Positions 5,093 through 60,381 of a DNA stretch of 64,000 bases are shown here, in pieces. Numbering within the stretch: the stretch's first letter is position 1; each line of letters opens with the position of its first letter. The translations under genes and the position numbers were made by a program. Below the pieces are notes generated by a model. The model searched no databases. It was not told where the DNA came from and saw only the letters and a program-made list of their open reading frames with translations. Source of the DNA: Hymenopellis radicata (taxonomy: Eukaryota; Basidiomycota; Agaricomycetes; Agaricales; Physalacriaceae); contig JADNRX010000215.1 in the NCBI GenBank assembly GCA_015501595.1, positions 1-64,000 on the forward strand, in the 5' to 3' direction.

Positions 5093-5135
5093 GTCAGTTT
5101 TTTGGGCTAGATTTTTGTGTCATTTATGTTAACGC

Positions 5136-29205: not shown

Positions 29206-29576
29206 TAAAGACTGTAAAATGGACTCAGTAGTAATGAAAGATCAGGATATTAACCTTTAGGGCGAGTGAGGCTCCTTAGAGCTGTGAGCCTCCAAGCACG
29301 ATTCTCGTTCGGATGCATGAGTCCTCCTCCATCTCCCCCGTCCATCTTCTACCGTATTTGCTTTGAAGGCATATCATAGAATTTCACGCGTTCATGTATT
29401 AATACTAAGCACGAGCGCGTCGCAAGCTCGGCGGCATCACGGCTGCTAACGCCCGATTAGAATTTGCCAAGTCCAAATCGGGACTCAGCGTCTTCCCCAG
29501 ACATGACTCATGGCGTCGTTGGCTTTGTATTATCACAAGGCGTTGATCGACTCCCAGTCCCTTGACTAGAACCATC

Positions 29577-30444: not shown

Positions 30445-32420
30445 TCTTCTCGAAACATCGCAGCGTGTTATCACTGAGGGTAGCAACTAATCCTCCGTCT
30501 ATAGCTGGTGTGACTTGTATTCTAAACTCATATATGGACTGTTTTAACTAATGATGGGAGGAATACTGACCAAGTCCTGTCAGCGTCAGGGAGTACGGCG
30601 ACCGTTCGGTCCTCTGAAGTTGTACAAGTCGGCGCCCATGGAGGTCGAGCAGCAGGAACCAACCGCACCACATATGGCCGCCACCCTCGAGAGCATGCGC
30701 GCCACACCCAACGTCCTGCTGTTCGACACCGGCAGCCAGTACGACCGGGGGACGATGAATTTGCTTCATACTCGTCTTGACTTCACACACAACTGTCCGC
30801 AGATCCAATAGCCGAGACGATTTGGCACGCACGGCAGTCGCACTTTCATAATAGGAGATGGGATTGTCGGCCAAACGTCCGCACGTTGATCGGTCAGGAT
30901 ATCACAATCGGTGGTAGATTGAACGGCGGGCTCGAAGTTGAAGATGATCTTGAGAGCCGGACTGAGCTCCACGCTGAATCCTCTGCTTCCACCGAGGAAG
31001 GAGCGCGCCCAAAGAGTATCATTTGAGTCACGATGTCCTTTGCTCAAGAGTCGAGCCTGGCAAGCGCAGGCTCGAACTGTGGTCTCGTGAACGCGACATG
31101 TTACAGTCACGTTACATACACCTCATCGTTCCGGATTTGGAAGTTGCGCCCTCTTCTCCTGACCATCACCAACGCTCGAATTTTCTTCCCCACCCTCCAA
31201 CTTCTGCTACGCTGGACCCTTACCGAGACTGCATTTTAGCCTTTACCGGAGCGTGTCCTTACCTGGCTTTCCACTTCACCGGTGGCTTTCATGGAAACCA
31301 TCTTGCCTGTTCGGTTCCTCCAAGCCCGGACTTCCTCTCACGCGTCGTTGATATGGTGTGGCCCGCTTGAATTGGTCCGATCCGAAGAGAGTGCCGATGT
31401 CTTGAACTGGTTTCCATCATCATCCCTGAAGACTTCGTGCGTATGGGCCGACCGCGGCCGGATTGGCGTTACATGACCGTAAGACTTATATCTCAGGCAA
31501 TAAGGCGACTAGCTGACTAGTGCCAGCAGACAGACCGACTTTACATCGTGCCGATGTTCTGAGTGTTTGCACTATAATCTCTGAGTGTCCGTTTCGTCTG
31601 CCTACATAAGTAGAGAAACCCGTAAACAGCCAAGGATTCATGTCAGCACCATGCGCGCTGTCTTCTGCACTATCAAAAGATGCTCACGTTCGGTTCTTTA
31701 TTACCGTCGAAACGCATGCTGCTATCTCGGTTCCGCCTACAGGCTTGCCAACGACACACGACTGAATACGAGCCATACGCAGGCAAGGTTCCTTCTCCAG
31801 TTCAGTTACTCATCCACACAAATCTTGATGTGCGTGTGTCCATTAGAAGATCCGTCATTGAAGGCTTACTTCACGCTATCTTTGGCAGAACACCTTTGGA
31901 CCTAGGCTCTAGAAAGAAGACATGCTATGAAGTTTGTGTCCAGATGTAGCTCTCCGCCACGAATAATACTAATTCGATCTTACCTGCTTTCTCTGCGGTT
32001 TAAAGCTTCCTTTACGTCCTTTCCGGCGCCCTCACGACATGCTCTATCGCCATTATCTGGCCACATTACGCGTCTGTTCATGTGGAGTGTACGAACAGAC
32101 ACGCGTTACTCGTCCTTGGCGTCGTGGCTCTTCGTTTCACGCCGGCTTGAATGCCCGCAAGTCAGCGTACCCCTTTCATAGTTTGCTATCTCTGTGGGAG
32201 GATGTACTTTCCACAACATCACCATCAGAGTACCCCCGTTTCGGCACCACATGCTCGTAGCGTGTCTTCAACCCGAGCATCATGATATCACCAGTTCTGT
32301 TGGGGTTACTTCTCTGATACCCCGGTGATTACCGCTTCCGCTACTTAAGACGCGACGTTATTATGGTTCCACAGGCTTTCTGCCCCCTTGCTCGCGTATT
32401 ATTCAGACTTTGACGAAACG
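30445..32420. other. No confident gene
   Basis: A plus-strand frame at 30551-30811 (APMEVEQQEPTAPHMAATLE, then NVLLFDTGSQYDRG) has coding-like composition, and a minus-strand frame at 30766-31110 contains ARSFLGGSRGFSVELSP. Both are too short and unsupported to call. The right part should include the promoter of the protease gene. Confidence 0.3.
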
Positions 32421-34643
32421 ATGGTCTTCTTCGCTAGGCTTCTTTCCTTCGTCCTGGTCGCCTTGTCTGCACATGCCGTTCCTTTTCCTGCGGCCTCCAA
32501 GCATGCAACACATCGCACCCGCGTGATTGGACGTCGCGCGCTCACTGTCGAGGCTTTCCATCCTGCGACAGACTACAAGGTGATCCGGCCTCACTTCTGA
32601 TCGCGCTCGAGCGCTGACACTCTTAAGACCTTCGGGGCTGAAGGAAAAGATATTCCGGCCTCTTTTACCGCACAATCTTTGGAGGATGTAACCAAGTCTG
32701 TTGTCGCCTCTGAGCTTGGTATCGACACCGATAAGATTGCCTACACGAGCGGCTTCGCTGAAGACGTTAGCTATACATACGTAAAACAACTCCATGTAAG
32801 AAATGCTTCTGGAATTTCAATGTATGTCAAGTCTGACAGCCTCCACAGGAAGGCGTAGAGTTCATTAATGCTGTCGCCAATGTCGCTATTAAGGATAACA
32901 AGCTCGTTGCTTTCGGTGCTTCTTTCGTCGATACCTGTATGTTCCATCAGAACCATCATTATAGTGTCAAGCGTGTTCATTAACGTACTAGCTAACATCG
33001 CCGACCCTACGCCGACTATCGATGTTCAGTCTGTGATCCCCACGATTGAGGAGCAACTGGACGGCACTTTCAACGGTTTCACAAGCCTCAACTATCTGGC
33101 TCTCGCGGATGGATCTGTCGCTCTCACGCATGCTATCCAAGTCCAGAATGACGAGACGAACGCGTGGTTCGAGGCTTACGTTGATGCGCACACCGGTGAA
33201 CTGCTCAGCGTTGTGGACTTCGTCGCGGAACTCAGCGTATGTGTTCACTCTGTCAAATATAGGAGATTGTACTAACAGCTACGTGTAGTACAGAGTTGTT
33301 CCCATTGAGATTGATGCCGGTGTTGATGGTTTTGAGCAGGAACTCCTCGTTGATCCTGAAAACCTGGACTCTTCTCCTGCCGGATGGGTTACTTCTACAG
33401 CTACCGAGTCAGTGCTCTATCACCATCCCCCACTAGCAGATGTTGTAATCATGATTTAAACAGGGGCAACAATGTCGTCTCCTTCAAAGGCACTCAAACA
33501 AACACAACAACTGGCTTTGACTTTGCTTATGACACCACTTTGGCTCCGACGGCTGGCTCAAATATCGATGCTGCTCGCGTGAATTCGTTCTACCTTATCA
33601 ACGCCGTACACGACATCCTCTACCAGTACGGCTGGACGGAGAGCTCGTTCAACTTCCAAACCAACAACTTCGGGAAAGGTGGTGCAGGGAACGACCGTGT
33701 CTTGATGAGCGTTCAGGATGCCAGCGGAACCAACAATGCCAACTTCGCTACCCCACCAGAGTGAGTCAAGCTTTTCGCTTCGTTTGAAACGGATTCTAAT
33801 GTTGCGTGCTCAGCGGGAGGAGTGGGACTTGCAGAATGTTTATCTTCACCTTGACGAACCCTAGGCGCGACGGAGACTTGCAGAATGACATCGTCGTTCA
33901 CGAGTTCACGCATGGTCTGACGAACCGGATGACGGGTGGTGGAACTGCTACATGCTTGCAGACTCTCGAGGCTGGTGGACTGGGTGAAGGATGGTCAGAT
34001 GCTATGTCGGTGTATGTTGTTTCGTCAATCGCACCGCGCACCATGCTGAACCGCCGGCTATGCAGATGGACTGAACAGACCTCGGCCGAAACTCCTGATA
34101 TGACCATGGGCAAATGGGTACTCGACGACGCCGCCGGCGTCCGCAGTCATCCATACTCAACCTCTGCTACCGTCAACCCTCTTCGCTACTCCACCTTACA
34201 GACCCTCAATGAAGTCCACGGCATGTACCGTCCTCGTCTCGATATGCCACAGTGAAATTGACATCAAGCTAGATATCGGTGAAGTCTGGACTAACATCTT
34301 GTACAACGTCTACGCTGCCCTCGTAGGCGAACTGGGCTGGTCTGCTACCGCCAAGACGGATTCTACGGGTAGCGAAGGCAACGTCGTCTGGCTTCATTTG
34401 TTTGTCGATGCTCTTGCTCTGCAGCCATGCAACCCTACTAGTAAGGAAATGAAACCTCCCTCCCTGCGTATGTTAATGACATCCTTTGCAGTGCCTAATG
34501 CTCGTGATGCGTGGATTCAAGCCGACGTGAACCGATACGGAGGTGCTAATGCCTGCACTTTGTGGACCGCCTTTGCGAGTCGTGGTCTCGGCGTTGGTGC
34601 AGCCAACCATGTTGATAGTTCGGCAGTCCCTAGCGGTTGTTAA
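32421..34643 (+). CDS. Fungalysin-type secreted metalloprotease (M36)
   Basis: A secreted zinc endopeptidase. The start MVFFARLLSFVLVALSAHA is at 32421 and is a signal peptide. A propeptide of the fungalysin type follows (FTAQSLEDVTKSVVASELGI, YVDAHTGELLSVVDF). The catalytic domain has SFYLINAVHDILYQYGW, the zinc motif HEFTH at 33899-33913 within VVHEFTHGLTNRMTGG, and the third ligand in GEGWSDAM near 33985-34005. The end has GEVWTNILYNVYAALV and a Cys near the stop. About nine introns can be placed without loss of frame. One of them, after the block ending NEVH, seems to use a GC donor (gcatgt...ctag) before DIGEVW. The gene appears complete. Likely role: extracellular protein degradation. 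Confidence 0.9.
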
Positions 34644-34845
34644 GCGGAATATACCGATGGTATGATGTACATCGTATGAAGATATACCACGAATTTACTC
34701 GAAGGCGAGTGATCTTTCCTCCAAAGGCCCCATGTCTTTTGCCGTCACAGGGACGGTGTCGGTCATATCTCAATTTGAAGATTTAGTCATTGAATTCATG
34801 AAAAAACATGGGTATCGTCTCTTCCAGACTTATCAAGTGCGCCGG

Positions 34846-36298
34846 TTACCAGTGATCTTTCTCGAACCGTTTCGGGAGAGTAGCGAAAATATCGTTCTGT
34901 GCACCTACGAAGGATCGGCGAAGAGACTCGGTGAATTCATTGAGAGACGTACCGTGTTTGAAGCCGCATTTCGCGTTATATCCAGGTGACTTTGGCGAAC
35001 CCGACAAGTCCCATCCGTTGACATCGATGTTGTTACCATCTGCCTGGTGCCAATACAGCATTTGCTTTGGGCCAGCAACGCATTTCGACTGGTCATTTTC
35101 GCACCATACCGGAGGGACGGCCTTTCCCACCGGGGTCGTGCTCGTCGCACCAGTCACCATGCATTTGTAGGGGAACATGTACATATTCGGCTCGCCGCAT
35201 CTATAAGCGCCGTCGTAAGAATTTGTGCATTCGAGGACGAGGAAAGACTTGCCCATTTGGTATCTGCACAATCGAACTCGACGGTTAAGAGCTATGTCAT
35301 ATATACTGGTATGGCTTACCCAACCCCACTGTGATGAAGTGAGTTCACAACAAACCAAACGAGGAATGAACGCACAGCGCAAATACAACCTCCGGGAGGA
35401 CAAGCAGGAAGACCCGCTGGTACGTCGTAGGTAGCCACTCGGTGCCACGGCGATCTACAAATGGTAAATCTATTGAAGTGAATATTGTAGGAGTAGGACA
35501 CACTTCTCAAGTACACTGAAGACTACAAGGTTTTCCGGCGTGACTTTGTTGATGTTGGACTGCAAAAGGGATCAGTAATGAAATGGGCGAGGGTACAGCA
35601 CTACCTACTTGATATGAGATCGCAAATGCTGTTCCCGCGGCCATCGATTCGTTCTGCGTGTGTACTGTGTCCTTCATCAAGAGGGTGTTGAATCAAATGA
35701 CGACCTATACGCACGATTGGGAGAGGTGATACAGGTGGAATGCTACGAGAGCCCAATTAGTACGAGTGGAGACATGTGAACTTGAACTGACGTCTCGCTC
35801 AAATTCCGGGTGTTCCTCGCCGTCAGGGAAGAGGCCAACTCTTGTTCCTCCGAAAGACAGTGTAGTGAATGCTTGGTTAGCAGCTAGTTCGACCGTGAAA
35901 GAGCCACCGGCGGGTCTAGTAAACACGACTCAGAGACTGTAAGCGCCGTACTTAGAAACTACAGCTCACATCTCGAGAAATTCATGCATAGCGGGTGGGC
36001 GGGACTCGCACTTGCTGAAACGATGCACTACAATGCGGAGTGAGGCTCATCGCGTCGACAGGATACAAAGGATCTTACTCCACCATTTACCCTTGGGCAA
36101 TTGGTACATTGGATCGACACCGATATTGGAATTCTGGTCAGTACCGGAGAGACCCTGAAATAATACGGTAAGGTGTCACCAAGTACGACGAAGGAACGAA
36201 AGCCGCACGTTCTCGCAGTACATCCCGTGTGAGAATGCGACGATATGCGCAACGGCGGAGAGAGAGGTCGAAAGCAACAAGAAAGCAATCGAAAGCAT
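34846..36298 (-). CDS. Secreted copper-LPMO-like protein (AA14-like candidate)
   Basis: The start [17 protein letters not shown] at 36298 is a signal peptide whose likely cleavage leaves [13 protein letters not shown], placing a histidine at the mature N-terminus as in LPMOs. Introns separate [20 protein letters not shown], a second His block ([19 protein letters not shown]) and [20 protein letters not shown]. The C-terminal exons give [52 protein letters not shown] and GAQNDIF. The many Cys and the His/Tyr pattern fit a family of basidiomycete secreted proteins that I associate with AA14 (xylan-active LPMO). That assignment is from memory of family patterns, so the exact AA class is uncertain. 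No lesion was seen. Confidence 0.6.
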
Positions 36299-37293
36299 GG
36301 TGATGAGTTCAGAGCGGCGGTGAGCTTTTGCGTCGAGAAACCCCCGCTTTTATAGGTCGCGTCTACACATGATGGTGCATATTCTGAGGTCCGTCCGTCC
36401 GTCTAGCTTGCAACCGTGAGCATCACTTGGAGTAGTAGTGCATGACGAATATCTGAGAACTATCCGAATGCAGAAACACCGAGCCCTGTTGAGGGGATAT
36501 GGAGCTTCGAATAGGGCACAGGTACCTCTCAAGACACCGTGATTTCGAGTGAAGAGGATAGCCCGTTAACTTCGTGGATTTGTTAAGATCAGAGAATCAA
36601 CGGAATTTGGACCTGCGAGAGCAAGATACCGGAGAACTGACGCCACGAGCTAGCGGTACCGACCGATTGAGGTAGTCATGCGAGATACAAGTCTCGGCCT
36701 TCATTTCCGGTGAGGTGGATCGTTGAAGGAGGAGAAGAATTGGGATGCTCGTGTTGACGCTGTAGCCAAGCAAGGACATACATTCTTCTTGTTCTGCCAC
36801 GGTGTAGCGGATTCAGATGCTCCGAGACCAGCTAGCGAGAGCCCTCTGTCCAGCCTTGTGCACAGTCGGCATACCTTGGACTCCATACCCTTCGTATCTG
36901 ACCAGTTTCTTCATAGGCCTCGGACTTTGCGTCAACAGTGGCATTGGCGCTAGATGCGACTCTTGACAGTAGCGTGTAGTAGCTCTTCTCGCGTCAATGG
37001 CTCTCTTGCTTGTCTGGGACAGGTATGAGTGGCCCATATTCTCTCGCTGACGCTCAGTGAACGTCTGCTTCTGCGTCACATGATGGCGTTTCTACTGTAC
37101 CCGACAAAGGCCTTTGTTCCAAATCAGGGTCGAAGAGATATCTCGTCTTACGGAACCGTGGTCTGCAGTCTCTTCTTGATTCCCATGCTCGATGTATGTG
37201 GTCACATATATCTATAACAAGCTTATCTCCTCTTCTAACGGGACATCAAGTAGCCGTTCTTCTGGTGAATTTGAAGACCAAGGAGTTGTCGCC
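36299..37293. other. No confident gene
   Basis: This is the interval between the LPMO-like gene (-) and the SNF2 gene (+), and it should hold both promoters. Short frames on both strands carry no recognised domain. Confidence 0.35.
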
Positions 37294-39635
37294 ATGCCGC
37301 GGCCTGCGCAACCCAAGGCTGATAGTAGACGCGATTCATCGAGTAGGATGAGTAGGATGACAGGTGGGGCAGCCTAGCCCACATTCTGAACCAGGCTCAT
37401 CTTTATTGCAGAGAAACATGAAAGAAATCAGTTCTCAAAGTCCTTATCATCGACTTCGGCCTATGGGGACCTTCCAGTACCAGCACCACTGCCACCGAAG
37501 GAAAAATATTCTTCGCATCCTCGGCCGGCCATTTCATTTCCTCCTCCAGATTCACCAGAGTGGCTTTCTTCCCCATCAGTCCTCTTCAAAGGAAAACACA
37601 CGGACAATCATCCTCTGGATTGTATAGACCACCTTCTCCCGTATCTCCTAGTCCCACATCGCGCCGTTCTAGTAGCAGTGCATCGGCCCCCCGCCCACCA
37701 GTGAAGAACTCTCCACGAGAAGATACACGCAGATCCGGAATCACACCACTAAACGAGTACTTTCCCACACCGCCAGCATCGTTCAATGCGGGTTCCGCTG
37801 TGCCGTCTACACCGAAGCGCCGACAGCCCGTCAACCCCGCTTCCTTTTATCCAACGCCACCCCCGGAGCCAGTCAGGCAGCCCGCCACAAGTCGTGTCTC
37901 AGGCTCGGTCGTTTCACCGAGCATTCCTCGCCAGGCACCGTCTTACAGTCCACCATCCGAACCAGCGAAGAGAAGCAGTCGCAAGTCTGCCGCTGCCTCT
38001 TCCGTTGCACCTGGTTCGGTTCCAGTACCCGCTGAATGGAGTGCAGAGCGGCCTGGTTGGGAGCATGAGATTCCTTCAGACTGGAAGTTGAAACCGCATC
38101 AGGAATGTAGTCGTACGTGGATGGAGAGGATGGAGGCCAACGTTAAGTACAAGGGTGGGATTATTGCTGATGATATGGGGTACGCGCGCCTGCTTCTAAG
38201 TATCAAGGACGCTATTCATCGTCGCTTTTTGCACAGGTTTGGCAAGACTATCCCGATGGTGGTAAGGGTTTTGGATGACATGGCTCTCAATGGGCGAGTT
38301 GGACCAACGCTGTACGTCTGTCTAGTTTTCATCCGCCCGATTGACTTGCTGAATTGATGCTGGGTACTAGCATCGTTTGTCCGACAGGCCTTTTAACGCA
38401 CTGGCAGCTGGAAATAGCAAAGGTGGATCCGAATAAAACGGCATCGCGAGTATATAAGTGTCATGGTTCCAACCGTAACAAAAGTGAGCTCCTCAACACT
38501 ATTTCTGGTCGATACGTACCCACGTGTGTGTAGATGCGTCATTCCTCCAAGCTCAAGACATCGTCATCACAACGTACGGCATCGTGAGCAGCGACTTCTC
38601 GCCAATGGGCGTGAACAACAAGGGAGTGTGGAGGATCAACCCCGAGAGCGCCCCCCAAGGTCTCTTGGCAGTTGAATGGAGGCGCGTTATTTTAGGTATG
38701 GGACTGGAATTATCGCCGAGTGTTGTTTCCGAGATTAATAGTCTTGGTCAGATGAATCTCACCTGATTCACAGCACAGGTATCAAGCGCGCCATGGCATG
38801 CCGTGCCTTGAAGAGCCAGTGCCGCTGGTGCATGACGGGCACACCAATGTAAGCTTGTTCATGACGGTGCGCGGCGCGATTGATGCCATGTTCCTCTAGT
38901 CAAAATAAAGTCGCCGATTTGTACTCGCTCTTCGATTTCCTGCGTATTACGCATCTTGCACCTGCACTCGTCTTTCCCAGAGGGAAACGCGAGATAACAA
39001 TGTCATCGTCACAAATCGCAGAGCTCCATGTATGTGCCATTTTACTGTTCCTCCATAGTTTACGCCTTACATTCTTTGTAGGCTTTTTTGGAACAGACGA
39101 TGCTCAGGCGCACGAAGAAGGACAAGTACAATTGGGTTGGCACACTTAAGCCGCCTCTTCGCCATAAAGTTGAATGTGAATTCAGCGAAAGGGAACAACG
39201 ATTCTATGGGGTGGTGGCGACTGGTGGAAACTTTATGGTTTGCGGGGAATATGTTCCTGCTTCCAAGAATGCTCTCGCCCGCTACACTCGCATGCGCCAA
39301 GCGTGTCTTCATCCCCAACTCGTCTATCAGAATGTAACCTCGGAGCAAACAGAACACTTCGATGAAGAGGAGACGAAGATTGATCTCGGCGATCCGACAC
39401 AAAGCGAGTTGGATGAAATGGTGGATGAGCCGTATGTTCTTCGTGCTGTTCATGTCACTCGTCTGATTCTGTCCTTAGGTCGGATACCCCGCCGGCAGTG
39501 GAGCAGCTCGACGTCTCTCGTGTTGGCGTCTCGACAAAGATGGGGAAGCTGCTTAAGATCCTTGGAGAGGTTAAGCAACGTCCGGGCTTGGAGAAGACTG
39601 TTGTCATTTCACAGTTCACGTCCTATCTCGCAGCT
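37294..39635 (+). pseudogene. SNF2-family ATPase, 5' part, truncated by inversion
   Basis: Chromatin/DNA-translocase ATPase of the Rad5/Rad16/TTF2-like branch. After a long Ser/Pro-rich N-terminus, motifs appear exon by exon: GGIIADDMGFGKTI (Walker A, spliced near 38180), LIVCPTGLLTHWQLEIAKVD, DIVITTYGIVSSDF, the DESH box in VILDESHLIHSTG (spliced near 38695-38750), CRWCMTGTPIQNKVADLYSL, EQTMLRRTKKDKYNW and the second-lobe start KMGKLLKILGEV, then TVVISQFTSYL. No RING finger lies between the lobes. At about 39635 the frame leaves SNF2 and enters a gypsy chromodomain, so motifs V and VI are missing here. A frame change near 37590-37610 in the disordered region is unexplained. The start at 37294 is tentative. 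Confidence 0.85.
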
Positions 39636-39889
39636 ACAAAGTCAAATGGCTTGGTTATCCTGACTCCAAGAACACCTGGGAGCCGGCCTCCAACTTCTCC
39701 ACACACGCGAAGGAGCAGATTTATGAATTCCACCGAAACAACCTGACCGCCTATCGCGCCCCCGCTCCTCGTACACGTGCTCTCTTCGGCATCACCATGG
39801 GGGATATTTGGCGTGCTACTCCTGTGCTCCAGGCGCAAGCACAGCCTAAAGAGGGGGTATTGTCACGAATCGCCTTCCTCGTGACCTAG
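39636..39889 (+). pseudogene. Ty3/gypsy chromovirus 3' end (chromodomain) joined to SNF2
   Basis: The frame immediately after the SNF2 break reads YKVKWLGYPDSKNTWEPASN, the core of the C-terminal chromodomain of fungal Ty3/gypsy integrases, then a tail running to a stop at 39887-39889. The domain targets insertion to chromatin marks. The preceding part of the integrase is absent here but lies on the opposite strand at 45.41-46.82 kb and 60.38-60.77 kb. A purine-rich tract (aaagaggggg, about 39848-39857) precedes the likely LTR, as expected for a polypurine primer. Confidence 0.85.
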
Positions 39890-40627
39890 CGCCCCTTCCT
39901 TTTTCACTAATAAGGGCGCGCTAGAGTCTCCGGGCCACTCCATTATCACACTCCAGTGTTATCATGCTCTAACATCGTCATGTGTCAAGCGGTCCGGGTC
40001 CCGGTCCGGAAGTGCCGAGATGCCGGTTAGTGAGTCGTCTGGATTTTGGCCCATGGGCCAAAATCTATCCACTGCTAAGTCATGTGACCACCTCATGACT
40101 CCAGATGATCTGATTGGTATTCCCACTGTCTATTGTTCCATCCTAGGTCTTTCCATTGTTCGTACAGCCACAGACTCTATATACATACTGTAGCGTTTCA
40201 ACCGTATATTCTCATATCGGGTCACGGGGCCTCACGAACTGAACCTATACATATAGCATATCGCGTCACGGAGCCTCTTGGCCAGGCACGAGCATCCAAA
40301 AGTGGAAATTTCAGGTCCCACCTGCGGCGGGCCTGTCCAAATAAGGGAATTTAAGGGTCTGCGAAGCTGTTCGCTGTAAGTTCGAGGCATATCGGGTCAC
40401 AAGCTGCGAACCTAAGGTTGAAACGCTACAGTATACGCAGCCCTTGTAGATAGTTCCCCACTCTGTCCTCCTTTGTCTTCGTACTACACAGTCCCCTCTG
40501 TACTACGTCGAGCTAGCACAGCGTCCTCTACGCTTTATCATCTATCATTCTTATCGCATCTCTATTCTCCCGCTCCTCTAGTCGCAGCCCGAGCGGTCTT
40601 GTGCTCACGTGGTCACTGTTCTTGACA
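39861..40627 (+). repeat. Candidate gypsy LTR, interrupted by a MITE
   Basis: The sequence starts TGTCACGAATCGCC right after the polypurine tract, as fungal gypsy LTRs do. It contains a TATA-like box near 40179 and could end at the CA at 40626-40627. The MITE at 40189-40431 is inserted just past the TATA-like box. The second LTR is not in the window, so the limits are a guess from the TG...CA rule. Confidence 0.45.
40189..40431. mobile_element. MITE copy 1 (243 bp, TA target duplication)
   Basis: The element starts CTGTAGCGTTTCAACC and ends with its inverse, GGTTGAAACGCTACAG, flanked by TA on both sides, which fits the Tc1/mariner-type superfamily. It has no coding capacity. It is clearly related to, but diverged from, copies 2 and 3. 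It sits inside the candidate gypsy LTR. Confidence 0.85.
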
Positions 40628-40637
40628 TAAATAAGTA

Positions 40638-40881
40638 CTGTAGCGTTTCGACCGCAAATTCACATAACGGGTCACGGAGGTCTTTGAAGTGAAGCTATAT
40701 ATACATCATAATGGGTCACGGACCACTTTGGCCAGGCACGAGCCTCCAAATAAGGAAATTTCAGGTCCCACCTATAGCGGGACTGTCCAAATAAGGCAAT
40801 TTAAGGGTCTGTGAAGCTATTCGCTGTAACTTCAGACCATAACGGGTCACAGGCTATGAAGTTACGGTCGAAACGCTACAG
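40638..40881. mobile_element. MITE copy 2 (244 bp, TA target duplication)
   Basis: The terminal inverted repeats begin CTGTAGCGTTTCGACCG and end CGGTCGAAACGCTACAG, with TA on each side. By eye it is the exact reverse complement of copy 3 at 48728-48971, so both arose recently from the same source. It lies just outside the candidate LTR, within the inverted segment. Confidence 0.9.
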
Positions 40882-41024
40882 TATTTAGACCAGGAAATAC
40901 AGAACATAAAATAAAGGAAACTATGTGATCCCACTAGCAGGATGGATAAATAAGAGAAAACATAGAACACAAAATAAAGGAAACCTTAAATACTGAAACT
41001 TTGAGCACACTTTGAGCTGTCACT

Positions 41025-42545
41025 TCAAACCACCTCCGCTCCTTCATGTTTCTTAACCTGAATCTCCAACTCACTCATATGAACTTTCTCGAACTCTCCA
41101 CTATGGCCTTCCAACGCCTCCACTCCTTCTCGCTTCTCAACCTGAATCTCCAAATCCATATAAATCTCAGATGAGGCTCCAGTGTGACCCACAAACATCT
41201 TCACTCCTTCCCGCTGCCCAACCTGAATCTCTGATCCTACATAATTCCCATGAATCTCGAGCTCAGGCTCTCCAGCAAGACCTGTCACTCCTTCGTCACC
41301 AACACCCAAGTTCCCTTCTCCTACAAGAGAACCCGTGGCATCTTCAGCTTGACCAGCAGTATCAAGTGTTGATGTGATATTCTGTGCAGGGTGGACACTG
41401 CCAAATTGAATGCTCTCTTCAAGACCGCATATAGTGGAACCCATAGATGGAAGGGAAGAATGTGTCCAGGAGTCATTGGGACGTGCTCCACCAGACATGA
41501 CACGTTGAATAATCATAGTAGGTGCAAGTGCCTAAGTATCATGTTGTTAGTATAAGTTCTTAGAAATATAAAGGTAGAGACTCACAGTGACAGCATTAAG
41601 CAGTCCATATGCATAGTCAGATGTAAAGCTCCAGTATGGCAGGTAGAAATCCCTGACATCTAATACAAGATAGACAATATATGTTGCTGAATATAGAAAA
41701 GCAGATTCAACCAGAATCTCCAGAAGGCCATGATATGTTCGAGCAATCCTGAGTCCGCCAAAGGAGAGAATCCGAAAAATGATAAGGAAGGTGGTAAGAA
41801 CATTAGTGAATGCTGTGACAGAGTAGTACACAATTTGCCAGTTTATCTGATTGAGAGAAGTAGGTGTGGATGGATCAACAATATATGAGAAAACCATATT
41901 CAAAATGTGGCTTACTATCAGTTGAATCAGTAAGCTACTTTGATATATTAGATGCAGTACTCACACAATCCACAGAGCACACAAAGCAACGGAAAACCAG
42001 CAATTAAATAGTTCCGATTATAGAGCTCCCAACATCTCCAAATCTATGAATTTGTCAGCATAATATTATAGAAAAAATTATTTCATACATTAATAAGCTC
42101 TGCAAGAATTGCATTAAATGCAATTGCTGTATTAGCAAATACATTCAGAACTAGTCGTTTCTTTGACCATTCATCTCTGTCATCCATAACATAGCCTAGC
42201 ACAGAGTTCTGTGACTGTCCATAGGTGACATAGGTGGAAACTAGGCCATTCCAAGATATTCCCACGTATACAGTTGTCAGTGCCCATATGACACAAATGA
42301 TAATAGTCAATGCAATTCGTTGTGAAGGCCATTTATCAGCACTACTACGAGCACCTGCATAAAGCAATGAGCTAGAGATCATAATGAAAATGTGAATATA
42401 TACCTATCTGATGTATAGTAGAAACAAAGACCATGGTGTAGAGGCCATAGGTAAAGATTTCAATAATATGCTGGTTGAGGTTGACAGTAATTCTCTGAAT
42501 GACCTCAGCATCTGACAGGCCAAAGTGTTGTGCAACAGAGGACAT
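41025..42545 (-). CDS. Uncharacterised multi-pass membrane protein with C-terminal repeats
   Basis: The start is MSSVAQHFGLSDAEVIQRI at 42545. Successive exons carry hydrophobic helices: FTYGLYTMVFVSTIHQI, IALTIIICVIWALTTVYVGI, LVLNVFANTAIAFNAIL, VYYSVTAFTNVLTTFLIIF, ESAFLYSATYIVYLVLDV and AYGLLNAVTVSLYLYI. The layout of about seven helices is common in large unnamed Agaricomycete receptor-like families. The cytosolic tail (41025-41516) contains three imperfect units of the form EIQV.(K/R).EGVE separated by GH.G-containing spacers. The gene lies wholly within the inverted segment 39.64-45.41 kb, so its orientation relative to its neighbours was reversed. Splicing was read by eye, and its role is unknown. 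Confidence 0.6.
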
Positions 42546-44933
42546 GATAGTCGAGGGATTGATGAGGAGGTAGTGAATGAATATCTGTAAGTACTTCTCA
42601 GTCTTTATATCCTTCTCTATGCATCACATTGATCTTAAGAAGACGAGGACACTGGTGCACAGTCAAGACAGCTTTTGTTCATCATCACATTGCACTGTAA
42701 GTAGAGTTCTTCGACCCGGAACACAGTATGATACATGGAAATTGTACTGTAGTACATCACTCACGGAAGTCAAAGATGGAGACAGTGGTCCTAGACAGCA
42801 TTCGCCAGTCCGCGATTATCCTCTCGTGATTGTTACGCCCCCAGACAGAAGCTGTGATATCGCTGCTTGCAGGGAACAACTGTTCGGTAAATCTGTCTCA
42901 ACCGACGACAGTTCCGCGCGTCCGTGGATCCAGGCGCAAATCCATCGCAAATCCGTCACGGTTGCACAGCGAGACTTCGAACTACACCTCAAGTGCGATC
43001 CCGGACAAACTCGGTGAAGTAGAACCGCAAACAATTGTTGGGAGACGGAACACAGAGAGGAGAACATCAAGTTGCACTGTCGCGCTCTATATTGGGACTT
43101 GGAACATGGACTATTGCTGCTGAGAAACACCTCCGTGGTTCGAATTTGGACCGACATTCCATCCTTGAAAGTCGTCGTCACGTTCCTTCGGAGAGTCGAG
43201 AAAACCGTTGGAATTCCGACAAGGAAAGCTGTACTAGGACAACACTGTTATAATCAGTAAACCCGGAGACCTCACCTCAGTGCGGAACGGCGTAGTGAAA
43301 CCAGCAGATACTGTAGACGCGTCCATTATAGACCTCCGAGACTTTCCAGAGTTCCCCTGTTCAGTGGTGATGAAAGCCGTCATACAGTACTACTCAACGA
43401 CACATTATGAAAGGGTGATACTGATTCCAAGGACGTCGGGGGTGTTAGTCGTCATCGTCACCCGTCGTCAAATCGCTTGGTCCGAGGCGAGCGTTTCCAA
43501 ATGCGCATGGATAATCGAAGGAAGCGAGATCTGAAAGCGAATTTAGGTGTTGCATGGGATATTCGAACGTTCGACACCTACTCGATTCAACCAACGATGA
43601 ATAATCCGGCGATGAAAACAAGTGATCCCAAGGTTGCCAGAGCGCGTGCTGCAAGCATGGTGGGTTTGTTACCGCCGCTGTCGGTACAAGAGACGAATAT
43701 CACTGCACTTCCAGGTGAAATTTGGGTACATCTTCCATTGAATGAGTTCCTTAATTTCCTGAATAACAGCTGTAGCGCACCTATGCCTAGTCGTGGCCGC
43801 CGTCAAATTTCCCGACAATTATTCGAAACCCATCGACGCATCCGCCGGAATGAACGAAGGCGAAAACGAATGCAGTTCAAGTGGCAGATGTGCCGTCGTC
43901 TTGTGGTGGTGAGAGGATAACCTTGAATGGCTTACACAGCCACTCGCTCATCAACGCTCATCCTACTTTACTCCCACCACGACGTCTCCCCCGATGAAAC
44001 CAACACCGGCCGCTACCCAGACACAGACACGCAGGGAAACCGCCCAGACGGCGCGTAAAGGACGCACCAACATGTTGCTGTCGACAAGCGCAGGAATTAA
44101 GCAACAACGTGTTGGTTTCCGTCGTCGACAAGCGCTGGATTTGCCGTCGATGTCCTAGTCGCTATCGGCTACCCAAATTGAAATCGCCGGTCGCATCTCT
44201 CTCCTCTAGGCCAACGGCATCGATGAGGAGAAATCGGGTCGAATATGGGGTCAAGCACGAGGTGAGCAATCACTAGATATGTATATAACCCAGATTTCTT
44301 ACCTGCGCGCTTCAGCGTCTTCCAAGTTCCTCCATGGGGCCACTTGTGCAGTACCTGGACTTGATTTTCCGCTAGCAATCGACGACAATCACCCGTCCAA
44401 GACGCGCTACCCGAAGCCCGCGCGCGCGAATAGTTCACTACACGACGAAGGGATATAGTCGACTATGCAGTGCCGCCGATATCGCACTCAAGTACCAGCC
44501 TCGTGATTCGTCTTCGAGGGTAGCGGCGAAGAGCGGCGACGGGTTCGCGAGGTCAGGCAGTCAGATGTTTTCGAGACAGGAAATGTCCGCCTTGTGGGTG
44601 AATATTCTCAAGCCTTCTTTATGGTCTCTAACGATCTACGTCTCCCAGAGGTAGACCCTACTGTCATAAAGGAGTCCAATTCCAGGCTCTAACCGAGTTC
44701 GAGCATTCTTTCCGCCAATGCCGGCCTTGCATGGACGATTTCTCGCTGCGCGAAAGTGCCCTGCCTCCCGTACATGTACAAGGCTCCCGGTCTCCATCAC
44801 CGTACCTCTGATCCCGCATTCCTAGCACACATCAAAGTGTTACATAGAAGTACACGCTATACAGTAAAAGTCGTACAACAGGTCCCCGGAGAGGAAATAA
44901 TAGTACAAGTTCCATATATGCGCCAGCACGCTG
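42546..44933. other. No confident gene in the inverted segment
   Basis: The longest frame (43477-43920, +) has a basic C-terminal end (RRIRRNERRRKRMQFKWQ) but no known domain. The part before 44934 is the 3' flank of the SNF2 tail gene. No transposon end was recognised here. Confidence 0.35.
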
Positions 44934-45407
44934 TCAATAAGATAGGATCGGTTGTCCCCATAACTCAGATAGCAGTTTCTGCGCCAACACCTCCGACGCG
45001 CTCAACACTCGATCCGCGATTTCCTGTTTCTTCCTCTGCATCTGTACGAGAGTTAGCCGAACAATGCGGAAAGAAAACCAACACACCTCCAAGATCTTAT
45101 CCTCGATAGTACCCGGAATGATGACCTTGTAAATGTGAACAGTCTTGTCCTGCCCGATGCGATGAACGCGGTTGACGGCTTGCTCCTGTGCGAGTCCCCG
45201 ATGAGTACGTCTGGAGTATATGAAGATGCGATGCGCACCTCGACAGCGGGATTAAACCACGGATCCATGATGATCACATTGTTGCAAGCTGCGAGATTGA
45301 GACCTGTGTATTGGTGTTACTATGATAGTGTTCTTGCCAACCAAGATGACCGATGTACCTGTCCCACCCGCCTTCAACGATACTAGCATCACCGTATTAA
45401 AGATGGG
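44934..45407 (-). pseudogene. SNF2-family ATPase, 3' part, separated from its 5' part by inversion
   Basis: Four exons on the minus strand encode helicase motifs V and VI and the C-terminus: [12 protein letters not shown] (exon 45359-45407), GLNLAACNNVIIMDPWFNPAVE (45239-45303, given here only as a motif), EQAVNRVHRIGQDKTVHIYK then GTIEDKILE (45087-45185) and MQRKKQEIADRVLSASEVL to the stop (44934-45041). The introns of 55, 53 and 45 bp have GT-AG borders and keep the frame. The piece has no start of its own. Upstream on the same strand the sequence changes abruptly to a gypsy integrase tail. It supplies just what the gene at 37294 lacks, except for a stretch of a few dozen residues between SQFTSYL and [10 protein letters not shown]. 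Confidence 0.85.
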
Positions 45408-45552
45408 AGGGGAGGCCCGTGGGCATCGGTCTCGACCCAGGGGATAAGAAGGGAGGCGTGGAATACGTTGTGAATCTGCCATTTATTCAGCAGTTTGAGG
45501 CGGAAGTTTACTGTTCCGAGGACTTCAGTGATTTCGAATGGCCCATAGCGTT
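45408..45552 (-). pseudogene. Ty3/gypsy integrase C-terminal piece
   Basis: The minus-strand frame reads [20 protein letters not shown] then [13 protein letters not shown] and [11 protein letters not shown], the conserved stretch of chromoviral integrases just before the chromodomain. It is followed at once by the SNF2 tail. Its upstream continuation, across the hAT-like insertion, is at 46632-46824. The 8 bp at 45545-45552 (ATAGCGTT) are the left target duplication of that insertion. Confidence 0.85.
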
Positions 45553-46631
45553 TAGAGACCTCAACGAGTCAGCGGATCACGCGGATATATCTATACTCGA
45601 TCCGCTCGGGCATCTCGGAGATCCGATCCGTATGATCCGTAGACCCGTGGCGGGTCGGATCAGTAATGGATCGCGGATCAGGCTCTGGACGCACGAGTAG
45701 CGACGAGTACTCGTGTTGACTCGTCAATATTTAGCTATATATTTAATCTTAATTTACAAATTTTTGCGAAGTTAAACGGGGCCGTGCATCGCCCAAATGA
45801 GCCGTTCGCGTGAATTTCCAGTCAATTCCCACGATCCGGCAAATACCGAGAGGCCGCGTAAGCCTGCGATCAGATGGTTTCTCTCTCATCCTCTTACCAC
45901 CACCACCTACTACGACTACCCAGTGCGCGACGGTCGTCACCACTGCCTCTCTGACGATTGTCAGGGGCCTTTGGGGTATTTCTTTTGGCTTTGGCTCCGT
46001 GCTGGGCCTGCTGCTGTCTTCGCGATGGCAGCACGACTACTGGCGCTGGACGACTACGACAACTTGCATGATTGACGACATTCGGGATCGACGACGACGA
46101 CTTGCGGGACCGGGGATACACAACGACTTGCGGGATTCACGACGATGCGCGGGATGGATGATGGTGCGACGATGATGCGCGGGATGGCACCGATAGATAG
46201 ACGACGTGCAAGGACAAACAACTCAGATGTGGAGGTGAGGATGTATTCAATAGTGAGTTTTTTTATTACTCTACTCTTATCTCCCTTTCCCTGTCACCAC
46301 CACCACCCTCACTACACACCCTCACCACCCACCACCCACCACTTCCTCCTCCACTACCACCACTCCACCCTCAGTCTGCATCATGCACGGCTGAGTGTCC
46401 CCGTGCCATTGCCCGGGGATACTCGTCGCGCATGAATAGATTTGGGTGCGTAGAATACTCGAGTTTACTCGAGTACTCGACCCGCTCGGCGATCTCGGCG
46501 ATCCGATCCGTCTGATCCGTCGATTCGTGGCGGGTCGGATCACATAAGGATCACGGATCAGCACTTTCGGCCACGGGTACTCGCGTGATGGATCGCGGAT
46601 CTGATCCGGATTTGAGTCGTTGAGGTCTCTA
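45553..46631. mobile_element. hAT-like non-autonomous element A (1,079 bp)
   Basis: Terminal inverted repeats TAGAGACCTCAACGA / TCGTTGAGGTCTCTA are flanked by a perfect 8-bp duplication ATAGCGTT (45545-45552 and 46632-46639). The TIR start (TAGNG) and 8-bp duplication are diagnostic of the hAT superfamily. No transposase-like frame is present. Subterminal regions are full of short copies of GGATC and ACTCG motifs in both orientations, typical of transposase-binding clusters. It interrupts the gypsy integrase between codons of KRY and GPFE. Element B at 53057 is a relative in the opposite orientation. Confidence 0.92.
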
Positions 46632-46824
46632 ATAGCGTTTATTCGACAACTTAGCTTTCGGCCTCGTTGTAGCGAGGTTTTTTCCATCCAGCAACACCTT
46701 GTCTCCAACCTTGAACGTCGGATGTTCCAGCAGGTAATTGCCGTGCTGCGTCTTCATAACCTCCGCTGCGCTCTTCAAGCTCGCCTCTACCTCTTCTCGT
46801 AATTCCTTCAACGTCTCTAGGCGG
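46632..46824 (-). pseudogene. Ty3/gypsy integrase middle piece
   Basis: The minus-strand frame RLETLKELREEVEASLKSAA then HPTFKVGDKVLLDGKNL and PKAKLSNKRY is the region between the integrase core and its C-terminal SH3-like part. It continues without loss of frame from TLES at 60384 (across the 13.56-kb insertion) and into GPFEITEV at 45544 (across hAT element A). So one integrase gene has been cut twice by later insertions. Confidence 0.85.
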
Positions 46825-47032
46825 CATCAGCAAGTTCGAAGGCTCGTAAGTTGGCGTAAGCAGCGTAATCGTGTAATGTAGTGTAATCTCAGAGAGCAAA
46901 TATGGTCAACTTATGCCATATTATGCTCCTTCAGCCGTTACGATGCGTTATGCCTTCCAGCCTGACTTACGCCATTCACAAACAGCCGTGCCAGTGTGTT
47001 TCGGCTTGCTATCATTTCCCTCCGACAAGTTA

Positions 47033-50000
47033 CTAGAATAAAATCTCATTCGCATGGTAATCTACATACTTATTTACGTAGTACATCTCAAATGCATCTA
47101 GACTGTCTGAGTAATGGAAATCCTTTGGTAGAGGGGCGGGACCAAAAACAGGAAGAAGCTGTACACCACGCAAAAGTGAGTCAAGATGAACAACACTAAG
47201 ATAAGGGGCCTCGTCATGTCCGCGATTATCTGGCTTCACTCTCCACATGCCCGTCTTGGAATCAGGGTGTGCGCCGTGTCGATTAAACCAGTGGACGAGA
47301 GCACACGGGTATTCCGTGCCATCATATGTAAATGAAAAGAATAGGAGTATCCGAACGACGCTCATACCACGGAAACCCGGGGTGTCAGCATCCTCGACGA
47401 CAAGCGCACAATCACGGCGAGGATATCCATACCACGACGGCGTCGAGCGAATGCGTTCGCGTTTCATGCCACGGATGCCAGAGATGTCGCTGGGTGCATA
47501 ATAATATGCAGTGGCAGAATGATGAACGTAGATGTTGACGTCGATATGCGGGCAATCATCGATGTTGTCAGGCAGGGTATCACCGCCATAGAGCTGCTCG
47601 TAAAGAAAGCGGCGGGTGAGGTCCGGGAGGGCGGGTTGATCAACATCCACCGCGAGCTCGTACAGATCGCGTGAATACATGGCGAGCGGCTCTGGCAGAC
47701 ATATTAGCCATGGAGAAGAAATTGCAAGTTATCTTACTTACCTCGCGTTGTAGCGTGGACGACCTCCGCAATCACTCGGTCATCGTCAACGGGACCTTCA
47801 TCTTCGTCGCCACCATCGAAAGGATCAGGACGCGGGGCATGAAAGGCGGATACAAGCCCCGAGAGACGAGATCTGAATGCAGCGCCTGCAGCTTGTCGAG
47901 ACGTTGGTTGATAAGAAGCATTTGGCTAAGAGCGTTATAGCGGTTGGACCGCCTCCATGGCTTCTTGACCGCGGTGATATGACGAGACTCTGTGATCGAC
48001 GAGCAGAGACCGTTGGGTGCGCCGAAGGCCACGATGTTGTCGTAGTAATGCATCATAGAATGCTGGCGTGGAAGGTTGAAGTTCTCACGAACACCCGTTC
48101 GTATGAAAACCTCGCGATATTTGTGAAAGCGTGCCAGAGCGGCTTTGAGAGCTACAAGGGTGTCTTCGGTGATATCGGAGCGACGGGCGAGGTAGCAGAA
48201 GTCGGCAAAAGCTGCAATGCATTTGACGACATCCTCTTCGACGTACTCTGCAATGGCCGGCAAAAAGACCTAAACAGTGATCAACATTGTAACGAAAAGC
48301 AGGAAGACATAAGCTTACCTTCATCAGTGCCTTTGAATCATCTCCAGTCCACTGTTTATATCGTCGGCCTTGGGGGAAACGACGTAAACCAGGGAACTGA
48401 GGTGCAGCAGCAATGCTATTAACATGGTCAGCTGGTAAGCTTCTCCGCAGAGCGATAATACCTACCGTCGATCAATGTCGTCCATTATCTCCTTTGCGCG
48501 CGTGTTTCCCTCGGTAATCTGCAGATACTCGCCCACCCAGTCGACCAAGTGGTCCTTGAACGTGCCCTTGATGAGTTGATGAAGAAGATCAGACGCCATG
48601 ATTTCATGTATATCAGCACGGGGAAATTCATGAGTGAAGGGCTACGAACGACGTATGTTAGAATGACGATCAACATTGTTCGAAGACTTAGATACGCACC
48701 ACAACAGCTTCATCAATGCCCCAGTTACTGTAGCGTTTCGACCGTAACTTCATAGCCTGTGACCCGTTATGGTCTGAAGTTACAGCGAATAGCTTCACAG
48801 ACCCTTAAATTGCCTTATTTGGACAGTCCCGCTATAGGTGGGACCTGAAATTTCCTTATTTGGAGGCTCGTGCCTGGCCAAAGTGGTCCGTGACCCATTA
48901 TGATGTATATATAGCTTCACTTCAAAGACCTCCGTGACCCGTTATGTGAATTTGCGGTCGAAACGCTACAGTATCCCATAGAAGAGTATCCTGGCCCCCA
49001 AATTCATCAATCAACTTCTCAGTGTACTCCTGCGATCGCGGGCGAGCATGGGAGCAATCCAAGTCTGAGCTAAGCGCCGTGCATCTGAAGGTCGATTAGC
49101 ATAGAAAGAGACCATAATAAACGAAACACATGCTTAGGACACCAGTTAGAAACGACGCCAGCAAGTAAAACTTGCTCTGGGTAATCCGCAATGTAGGCAG
49201 CAAGATCATAGATCACGCGACGATAATGGCCGTCGGGGCAGCGCCGGATGACCGGAGTTTCCATAGCAGCCTTCAGCGGACGAAGGATGGAGGCAATGGA
49301 CTCGTGGTAAAGCTGGCGTTTGAAGTTACGATATGCCACATCGCCATCATAGACTCGATCCGCTGTGCGAAAAAACCATGAGCAACGATCACACAATGGC
49401 ACAGAAGAGACATACCCTTTGGAATTGCAAGAAATCCAATGGGAATGACTCCATTACGATGAGCCCGTCGCGCACCACCGTGAATGTTGCCGATCATCGC
49501 GTATAAGGGATGGTACTCGACGTTCCCAGTCATGACGGAAACGGTGGTCTTGTCACTCCCCAAGATAACCGGCACGTACATCGCGCCTTTAGTCGAGTTG
49601 TCGTTCTCGTAGATCATGGTCTAGGAGTCATTTGTTGAGGACGGAAAGCTGATGATGGGGAAAAGACATACCGCGTGGTTCCAAGAGAAATTGCCCGACA
49701 TGAATTCGCTCCAGCGCCGCTTTCCATCCGCGCCGATATGAACGTACGGGGACGTATCAAATTCACCGGCAAAGTTGGGATTGGATAGCATATTGGCGAT
49801 AACAACATCCGGATCGCGAAACCAGATCTGATAGCGCTCCTTCATCCACAACGGTGCAGTCGAAGGGAGAGTGGGATCATCCTCTGTCTGGTAGCACTTC
49901 CACGGCGCACTGCCAAAAGGGATTGCGTCGATACTGGCGAAGAGGTGATCGTGGTCGGCAAATGGACCGGTCCTATCTGTGCCCAGCAATGAGAGAGACC

Positions 50001-50547
50001 AACACTCCATGATCTCGTCGATATCCTCCTTTGATGCCTCCATCCGCTTGAAGAGTACATTTGCCATGCGAAAGCCAACCTGATCCGCGAACGGCGCCCA
50101 TGGATTCTGCGCATCGATAGGGGGCGGCGGTGGAGGAGGAGGAGTGCCATCAGGTAGATCATGTCCGTTTTCATCACATGGCGTACCTTCAAGTCGATGA
50201 GTTTAATCGTATAAGATGAATAGGCAGTACTTACCGGTTAGATGAGGATGAAATATCTTTTGATGACGAGGAAGCTCGGGCTCGGGGGTGGGCTGCCGCT
50301 CGGGTTCTTCATCCTGTGGCAATGGTGGCGTAAAATTATCGCGCATTTCCTGATCATCGCTGTCATCGGCCGCAGGAGGTGAGGCTGGTGTCGGATTGGA
50401 TGGTGGCTGCTGAATGTTGTGGTGAATAGCCTTGACATGGCGAGTCAGTCCGCTGGTGTTCCCCGGCTTGAAGGTCTTCAGACATCCTGCATACGGGCAG
50501 GAAGTGCGGCGGATAGAGGCAGTGGAGACCGTGGGGGCGCGAGGCAT
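47033..50547 (-). pseudogene. Plavaka transposase, interrupted by a MITE
   Basis: The start MPRAPTVSTASIRRTS at 50547 leads to a C2H2 finger (CPYAGCLKTFKPGNTSGLTRH). After an intron the transposase blocks follow: MKERYQIWFRDPDVVIANML, YVPVILGSDKTTVSVMTGN, NIHGGARRAHRNGVIPIGFL, HYRRVIYDLAAYIADYPEQV, PFTHEFPRADIHEIMASDL, QLIKGTFKDHLVDWVGEYL, GAPNGLCSSITESRHITAVK and the end SDSLDAFEMYYVNKYVD. These are the hallmarks of fungal Plavaka proteins. The acidic residues in FPRADIHE and DHLVDW may be catalytic; this is inferred. The 244-bp MITE at 48728 sits in the exon between GGQDTLLW and GIDEAVV. Without it the frame is continuous, so inactivation is recent. Confidence 0.88.
48728..48971. mobile_element. 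MITE copy 3 (244 bp) inside the Plavaka transposase
   Basis: It is flanked by TA (48726-48727, 48972-48973), with terminal repeats CTGTAGCGTTTCGACCG and the inverse. By eye it is the reverse complement of copy 2 at 40638-40881 without a difference. It disrupts the transposase exon. Confidence 0.92.
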
Positions 50548-50723
50548 AGTTGGTGGGTTGTTACTGCAAGAGATGATTAATCAGACACCGCACTGTAAAA
50601 CTTTTGCGATCGAGCAGCTTATCGTGACTCCGACGCAATTTCAAAGTTGGACTTATATCACGCCGGTTCCTTCCTTGACTCCCCTCTAGGCGTATCTTCG
50701 CTTTTCCGCTGACTTGCCCAGCC
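50548..50723. promoter_or_regulatory. Bidirectional promoter between Plavaka transposase and partner gene
   Basis: The two start codons are 176 bp apart and face away from each other, so this interval must drive both genes. No specific binding site is named. The compact divergent arrangement supports the two genes belonging to one element. Confidence 0.5.
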
Positions 50724-54228: not shown

Positions 54229-54489
54229 CTGGTAAGCACGATCGTTTCATTCAAGTCCCCGCCGATGACTAACGCTTCCATCAGGCGCTGCACCACCCGC
54301 GCGTGTTTTCTTTTGGCATCCGAATGTGTCCCTCGACACCGGCGCTGCCTGTACCACCACCGTTTTCGTACCGTAGCATCGCACTGTCCTTACTATATCT
54401 TTAAATGTATGCCAATGCACTCTCCATGGACTGGTATGCCCCCCCGGAAGGAAAACAAAAGCTGTAAATTGGATAATGAGAGGCGTAAT

Positions 54490-59150: not shown

Positions 59151-59159
59151 AGGACCATG

Positions 59160-60368: not shown

Positions 60369-60381
60369 GAACTTGCTGATG

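What the first reader, a model, noticed from the sequence alone, without database searches (positions are those of the whole stretch)
37294..45552. A gene and a retroelement exchanged ends: inversion with breakpoints in an SNF2 ATPase and in a gypsy integrase
On the plus strand SNF2 motifs I-IV run into a gypsy chromodomain at about 39635. On the minus strand a gypsy integrase tail runs into SNF2 motifs V-VI at about 45407. The two chimeric junctions are complementary: inverting 39.64-45.41 kb would bring both SNF2 halves and both gypsy halves back into line on their own strands. Only a few dozen residues of each are missing at the junctions. All SNF2 splice sites and key motifs on both sides are intact, which suggests a recent event. 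It moved a promoterless SNF2 tail and a seven-helix gene to new contexts and may have created an SNF2-chromodomain fusion transcript.
Basis: partly seen in the sequence, partly recalled or inferred. Interest (0 to 1): 0.88.

Follow-up and report, generated by a model that had tools for sequence, protein, structure and literature searches.

The report
Small inversion breaking helicase gene and retrotransposon
In what is probably one of the two genome copies of a rooting-shank mushroom, a 5.8-kb piece of chromosome was flipped, cutting an SNF2-type helicase gene and a gypsy retrotransposon in two, while the other copy keeps the helicase gene uninterrupted; it is a very clearly readable case of a known kind of event.

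Summary
C687 of the same assembly carries window 23.9-39.6 kb (94-96%), runs through 169 bp absent from the window, and continues into the reverse complement of window 45396-44538 (93%) and on through the seven-helix region. Both SNF2 pieces thus match one uninterrupted gene. Left joint 39630/39631 is blunt; the right joint has a 4-nt filler (45397-45400); 169 bp of SNF2 and 86 bp of gypsy are gone. That fits end joining of two breaks in one haplotype of a probable Hymenopellis radicata dikaryon.

The gypsy is chimeric: its flanking duplications differ (5' ATAGA, 3' TAAAT), and contig C496 carries the swapped pair. C496's arms match the C687 end (95.8%) and the gypsy-free contig C1035 (99.7%). 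This is a reciprocal exchange between two gypsy copies, or an assembler swap; 3 of 7 other copies checked also have discordant flanks. Second, no SNF2-chromodomain protein is directly encoded: SNF2 stops at 39746, in another frame.

New member of a known kind.

The parts
37294..39630 (+). SNF2 gene, N-terminal part (9 exons, 8 GT/AG introns), truncated inside helicase C lobe
   Evidence: 95% to C687 15634-18080
39631..39860 (+). 3' end of gypsy coding region with chromodomain; left joint is blunt at 39630/39631
39861..40628 (+). gypsy 3' LTR, interrupted by a short element at about 40188-40426
40629..40635 (+). TAAAT flank of the 3' LTR, in sequence native to the region downstream of the seven-helix gene
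   Evidence: C676 GGATAAATAAG; C687 GATAAGTAAACAAG
40636..40883 (.). 248-bp short element, inverted copy 100% identical at 48726-48973
   Evidence: 88.4% to C687
44934..45396 (-). SNF2 gene, C-terminal part with motifs V-VI; the block matching C687 extends to 44538
   Evidence: 93% to C687 14599-15464
45397..45400 (.). 4-nt filler at the right joint
45401..45554 (-). gypsy piece upstream of the lost 86 bp
   Evidence: 99.4% to C413
45555..46631 (.). nested element with terminal inverted repeats in the gypsy, 9-10 bp duplication
46632..46824 (-). gypsy, continued
46825..60381 (.). 13.6-kb nested insertion(s) including a Plavaka transposase match at 49621-50202
60382..60767 (-). gypsy, continued; 5' LTR ends at 77268 of the contig, outside the window
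23864..37293 (.). left flank collinear with C687
   Evidence: 96.9% substitution identity over 23952-37292

Best explanation
One haplotype (h1) of what is probably a dikaryotic mushroom, Hymenopellis radicata, carries a 5.77-kb inversion (39631-45400). Shown from the assembly: a second contig (C687) has the uninverted order SNF2 N-half, SNF2 C-half, seven-helix gene; the joints lack homology; 169 bp of SNF2 and 86 bp of gypsy were lost. Inferred: two double-strand breaks, one in SNF2 and one in a gypsy retrotransposon about 5.8 kb away, freed a fragment that was end-joined the wrong way round. The likely result is a null allele of the SNF2 ATPase (N-lobe without motifs V-VI; a tail without promoter), sheltered by the uninterrupted allele in the other nucleus. 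Shown as assembled: the broken gypsy is chimeric and its flanking duplications are exchanged with those of a gypsy on C496. Inferred, about even odds: this is a real reciprocal exchange between two gypsy copies, joining locus 1 (SNF2) to locus 2 (repeat family R), either before the inversion or in the same repair event.
For: C687 collinearity. Third copy C676 is continuous across the breakpoint (12930-13901 against C687 14587-15675, 74.6%). Gypsy pieces collinear with C413 across the joint. Blunt joint, filler and losses; no inverted repeat of 40 bp or more pairs the two breakpoints. Exchanged flanks: C536 5' ATAGA and 3' TAAAT; C496 5' TAAAT and 3' ATA-[386-bp element]-TAGAC. C496 past its 3' LTR is 99.7% to C1035 7808-8194, where C1035 holds the uninterrupted site; C1035 7601-7811 is 97.6% to C536 77479-77269. 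C496 19661-20637 is 95.8% to C687 1-973. C496's gypsy keeps the 86 bp. Two-copy loci elsewhere in the assembly: L001/L002 98.1%, L011/L015 94.9%; Rpb2-type genes at one, two and one places by score pattern.
Against: No reads were available, so neither joint nor the exchange is physically verified. Near-identical gypsy copies could have been crossed by the assembler, giving exactly the exchanged flanks; of 9 gypsy copies for which both flanks were read, 4 match (C413, C1273, C540, C169) and 5 do not (C582, C1040, C1051, C536, C496). The seven-helix part of the inverted segment is more diverged from C687 (87.8%) than the left flank (96.9%), so C687 is not a perfect stand-in for the ancestor there. 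Locus 1 has no exact empty site: C687 reads GATAAGTAAACAAG where TAAAT is expected. C687's own SNF2 frame has a 1-nt break, and the database model splices round it, so that the second allele works is assumed. Rpb2-type genes are doubled at only one of three, so the assembly is at most partly split into haplotypes.
Confidence: 0.82

Rival explanations
1. Inversion real, exchange an assembly swap: locus 1 holds one gypsy with TAAAT on both sides, locus 2 another with ATAGA on both sides, and the assembler crossed them inside near-identical gypsy sequence, giving C536 and C496. (This shares the inversion with the best explanation; the odds are for the exchange part.)
For: Crossing a two-in two-out repeat makes reciprocal errors. 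Gypsy pieces are about 98-99% alike. 3 of 7 other paired copies are discordant as well. It would restore a simple single-gypsy inversion.
Against: From the R flank to the first large nested insertion in C536 is only about 5 kb, within long-read reach. C582's two LTRs look like different subfamilies, which a swap between near-identical copies explains less easily.
Confidence: 0.42
2. C687 and C536 are two loci of a segmental duplication in one haploid genome, not alleles; the inversion hit one duplicate.
For: A more distant duplicate (C676, about 78%) exists, so the region does duplicate. Two of three Rpb2-type genes are single in the assembly.
Against: The flanks have the partners expected of two haplotypes (C536, C496 against C687, C1035), and other genes are also present twice at 95-98%.
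Confidence: 0.12
3. Both joints are artefacts of chimeric reads or misassembly; there is no inversion.
For: Repeat-rich region; no reads to check (no call bears on it).
Against: Two independent artefacts would have to fall at complementary places, each with loss of sequence and no homology.
Confidence: 0.05
4. The SNF2 halves come from different paralogues brought together by separate events.
For: Several SNF2 paralogues exist.
Against: Both halves match one C687 gene at 95% and 93%; the next best are 74-84%.
Confidence: 0.01

Closest known systems
Galileo-generated inversion 2z3 of Drosophila buzzatii (PMC2775673; abstract and passages seen)
   Same: Chimeric element copies with exchanged target site duplications, single target copy in the standard arrangement.
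   Different: There the exchange itself made the inversion, without deletions. Here the exchange joins different loci, and the inversion has non-homologous joints with losses.
Ty-mediated reciprocal translocations in yeast (PMC9879454; abstract, outline and passages seen)
   Same: Crossover between non-allelic LTR retrotransposons; both products can be kept.
   Different: Induced in the laboratory; no inverted fragment at the joint was seen in the passages read.
TE-linked differences between nuclei of a mushroom, Phlebopus portentosus (PMC12411881; search listing only)
   Same: By its title, two nuclei differing by TE-mediated variation.
   Different: Breakpoints were not seen by me; only the listing was read.
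Chromodomain-bearing Ty3/gypsy elements (chromoviruses; recalled)
   Same: Chromodomain at the end of the coding region, LTR of about 520 bp starting TG and ending CA.
   Different: This copy is cut by an inversion and carries six nested insertions.

Membership tests
Inversion by end joining of two breaks | Standard order present in a homologous chromosome | tested here: met
   C687
Inversion by end joining of two breaks | Joints without homology, with small losses or filler | tested here: met
   Blunt and 4-nt filler; 169 and 86 bp lost
Inversion by end joining of two breaks | No inverted repeats at the two breakpoints | tested here: met
   repeats of 40 bp or longer with 16-nt seeds; shorter ones were not looked for
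Inversion by end joining of two breaks | Present in the living strain's DNA | not testable with these tools
   No reads held
Ectopic recombination between transposon copies | Exchanged target site duplications between two copies | tested here: met
   C536 and C496
Ectopic recombination between transposon copies | Single uninterrupted target in the standard arrangement | tested here: inconclusive
   Locus 2 met exactly (C1035); locus 1 approximate only (C687, C676)
Ectopic recombination between transposon copies | Uninvolved copies have matching duplications | tested here: inconclusive
   4 of 7 other copies match
Ectopic recombination between transposon copies | Exchange present in DNA, not made by the assembler | not testable with these tools
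   No reads held
Chromodomain-bearing gypsy element | Chromodomain match | tested here: met
   PF00385, 1.7e-11
Chromodomain-bearing gypsy element | Polymerase gene order (protease, RT, RNase H, integrase) | not tested
   Only the end before the chromodomain was inspected by eye
SNF2-family ATPase | SNF2_N and Helicase_C domains in one protein | tested here: met
   C687 gene, PF00176 3.2e-51 and PF00271 1.1e-20 (protein read with one X); in the window the two lie on separate strands

The most novel reading that the evidence does not exclude
A single repair accident made everything: a break in gypsy copy 1 was repaired by crossover with gypsy copy 2 elsewhere, while the fragment between that break and a second break in SNF2 was end-joined backwards into the same joint. 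The dikaryon then still holds both derivative chromosomes and both standard ones, and the inversion sits exactly at a balanced translocation breakpoint. C496 keeping the 86 bp lost from C536 fits this.
Probability: 0.25. Interest if true: 0.62.

Novelty: new member of a known kind. Interest (0 to 1): 0.45.

Why it matters
If the exchange is real, one dikaryon shows both products and both standard forms of a retrotransposon-linked translocation plus a micro-inversion at base resolution. That would make it testable how such accidents combine homologous crossover with end joining, and whether dikaryons shelter broken chromosomes and null alleles for long. If the exchange is an assembler swap, the lesson is practical: exchanged target site duplications can reveal crossed contigs in dikaryotic assemblies.

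Tried and rejected
Fusion protein: rejected as directly encoded; the SNF2 frame stops at 39746 and the chromodomain is in another frame; on the other side the gypsy frame stops 3 codons past the joint.

Raised divergence as a result of the inversion: not supported. The SNF2 tail lies inside the inversion yet is 94.6% (97.5% over 45000-45396), close to the left flank (96.9%); only the seven-helix part and the stretch to 44.37 kb are low (87.8%).

A Plavaka element spanning 45548-54143, suggested by inverted repeats: rejected; the gypsy resumes at 46632-46824, so 45555-46631 is a separate small element.

Nested LTR element looking older than its host (94%): rejected; the difference is 5 substitutions and one 13-bp gap.

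Search for the R-side 3' end as one uninterrupted word gave 0 matches; explained later by a 386-bp element sitting inside the duplication. Search for TAAAT before an LTR gave 1, on C496.

Homology of C496's left arm with C687 looked absent at first (35 bp only; one 63-bp match on C496, among similar matches on other contigs) and was found only when 3 kb more was read.

The C687 exon-joining script failed at one anchor; the C687 protein was typed by eye from the frames, and is 97% identical to the database model P0001. The window N-half exon join ran but reads out of frame after the C-run difference, so only the part from motif I onward was scanned.

Seven-helix protein: the pieces were joined by eye, the joins unverified; no Pfam match. 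No structure prediction was made and no paper supplements were read.
Full report
What was checked. The window is bases 1-64000 of a 93,321-base contig, C536, in a 75.5-Mb assembly of 1405 contigs. Protein search found two database proteins on contigs of 56,608 and 93,321 bases, the lengths of C687 and C536, both labelled Hymenopellis radicata. The one on the 93,321-base contig is marked partial and ends ...TSYLAAT, three residues past the joint. A paper names the sequenced strain IJFM A160 and says that its genomes used Illumina and PacBio with Velvet, AllPathsLG or Falcon (PMC8480192, passages); which was used for this strain I did not see, and that the window comes from this strain is inferred from the contig lengths and species label. 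C536, C687 and C676 as fetched contain no N.

The SNF2 gene. The N-half has nine exons from 37294 to 39630 with GT/AG introns. The gene of C687, read with one X, has SNF2_N and Helicase_C. In the window these domains lie on opposite strands 5.8 kb apart. Window 37200-39630 matches C687 18080-15634 at 95%, and window 45396-44538 on the minus strand matches C687 15464-14599 at 93%; between them C687 has 169 bp that the window lacks. The rest of the inverted segment follows in order: 44367-41950, 41958-41639, 41616-40919 against C687 14528-12200, 8353-8033, 6384-5707. This is the uninverted arrangement. A more distant copy, C676, is continuous across the breakpoint.

The gypsy. Against gypsy copy C413:91001-99000, contig C536 shows one collinear chain on the minus strand: 77268 down to 76416, 76186-72258, 69048-68608, 68227-67996, 60767-60382, 46824-46632, 45554-45401, then, after the joint and with 86 bp missing, 39631-40187 and 40427-40628, each about 98-99% identical. 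The six gaps in the right-hand part are insertions, most with visible terminal repeats and short duplications. The gypsy therefore spans the right breakpoint, and re-inversion would bring its pieces into line.

The joints. Left: SNF2 ...CTATCTCG, gypsy CAGCTACAAAG..., no shared base. Right: gypsy ...CCCATCT, TTAA, SNF2 TACGGTG.... This is the look of end joining. No inverted repeat of 40 bp or more links the two points.

Consequences. The SNF2 frame runs 38 codons beyond the joint and stops at 39746; the chromodomain is read in another frame, 39575-39889. The gypsy frame on the other side reads ...PSLIR and stops. So no fusion protein is directly encoded. The truncated protein has the N-lobe but lacks motifs V and VI, and the tail lacks a start region; loss of function of this allele is an inference.

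The exchange. LTRs of this family begin TGTCACG and end TTGACA. In C536 the 5' LTR is preceded by ATAGA and the 3' LTR is followed by TAAAT. In C496 the 5' LTR is preceded by TAAAT and the 3' LTR is followed by ATA, a 386-bp short element, then TAGAC. C1035 carries the uninterrupted site: its bases 7808-8194 are 99.7% to C496 just past that element, and 7601-7811 are 97.6% to C536 77479-77269. C1035 is further collinear with C536 (3320-5897 against 87352-90000, 91%) and, by positions of repeated copies, with C496 (24840 with 55126, 25147 with 55434, 25975 with 56259, 26713 with 57018). On the other side C496 19661-20637 is 95.8% to C687 1-973, and the last 35 bp or so before its 5' LTR resemble C687 5703-5737 at 86%; between these two stretches C496 and C687 differ in length and content, with only short matches. 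Thus C687 and C1035 look like the standard forms of two loci, and C536 and C496 like the two derivatives.

How sure is the exchange? Exchanged target site duplications on chimeric copies are what ectopic recombination is expected to leave (PMC2775673, abstract and passages), but an assembler that crosses two near-identical copies gives the same pattern. I read both flanks for 9 copies. Duplications match in C413, C1273, C540 and C169; they do not in C582, C1040, C1051, C536 and C496. C1040 and C1051 share a 5' flank found nowhere else (2 matches in the genome with up to 2 mismatches) yet differ at the 3' flank. Copies on C710, C225, C989, C675, C520, C491, C1279, C173 and C1098 were not paired. 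Discordance is thus common here, which is either frequent recombination or frequent crossing in assembly. I give the exchange about even odds and keep it apart from the inversion, which does not depend on it.

Ploidy. Evidence that the assembly holds two haplotypes in part: L001/L002 98.1% over 3.66 kb, L011/L015 94.9% over about 3.5 kb, and Rpb2-type genes at one, two and one places; two of these three genes are single, so the split is partial at best. A strain of the same name, MG139, is reported as dikaryotic with 4.23% heterozygosity (PMC9961838, passages), so differences of a few percent between nuclei are not unusual in this group.

Age. Substitution identity with C687 is 96.9% left of the gene, 96.4% in the N-half and 94.6% in the C-half block, so the event lies within the differences between the two copies; a date cannot be given. 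The rest of the inverted segment (40919-44367) is 87.8%, and C676 is about equally far from both, so that stretch has its own history.

In print. Six searches of the open-licence library listed, by title and abstract start, nothing on this locus; they showed 15 of 45, 15 of 20, 10 of 1,656, 12 of 207, 8 of 117 and 8 of 547 papers, so this is a look at the top of the lists, not proof of absence.

Noticed in passing
window 457-23863: A 23.4-kb insertion relative to C687 (flanks contiguous at C687 38604-38611, apparent duplication around ATCAT), holding a Helitron-type replicase (3058-5148), a weak Pif1-like match (7240-7839, below Pfam's cut-off) and a shikimate-kinase-domain fragment (22086-22736).
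   Followed up: partly
window 40919-44367 against C687 5707-14528: This part of the inverted segment is 87.8% to the other copy against 96.9% in the left flank, with C676 equally distant; possible old polymorphism or conversion among tandem seven-helix genes.
   Followed up: partly
C582, C1040, C1051 gypsy copies (L042, L062-L066): Target site duplications do not match in 3 of 7 other copies; C1040 and C1051 share the 5' flank but not the 3' flank.
   Followed up: partly
window 40636-40883 and 48726-48973: A 248-bp short element present twice in opposite orientation at 100% identity, suggesting very recent movement.
   Followed up: no
C536 77269-80271 (outside window), C496, C1035, C704: Repeat family R, a multicopy block with several copies on C496; identity unknown.
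   Followed up: no
window 33800-34252: Fungalysin (M36) metallopeptidase gene fragment in the shared left flank.
   Followed up: no
C574 (L011) and C939 (L015): An allele-like pair (94.9%) of another SNF2 copy in which the matches to window 38.7-39.19 kb and 44.6-45.14 kb adjoin, so that the parts equivalent to 39190-39630 and 45145-45396 seem deleted or replaced.
   Followed up: no
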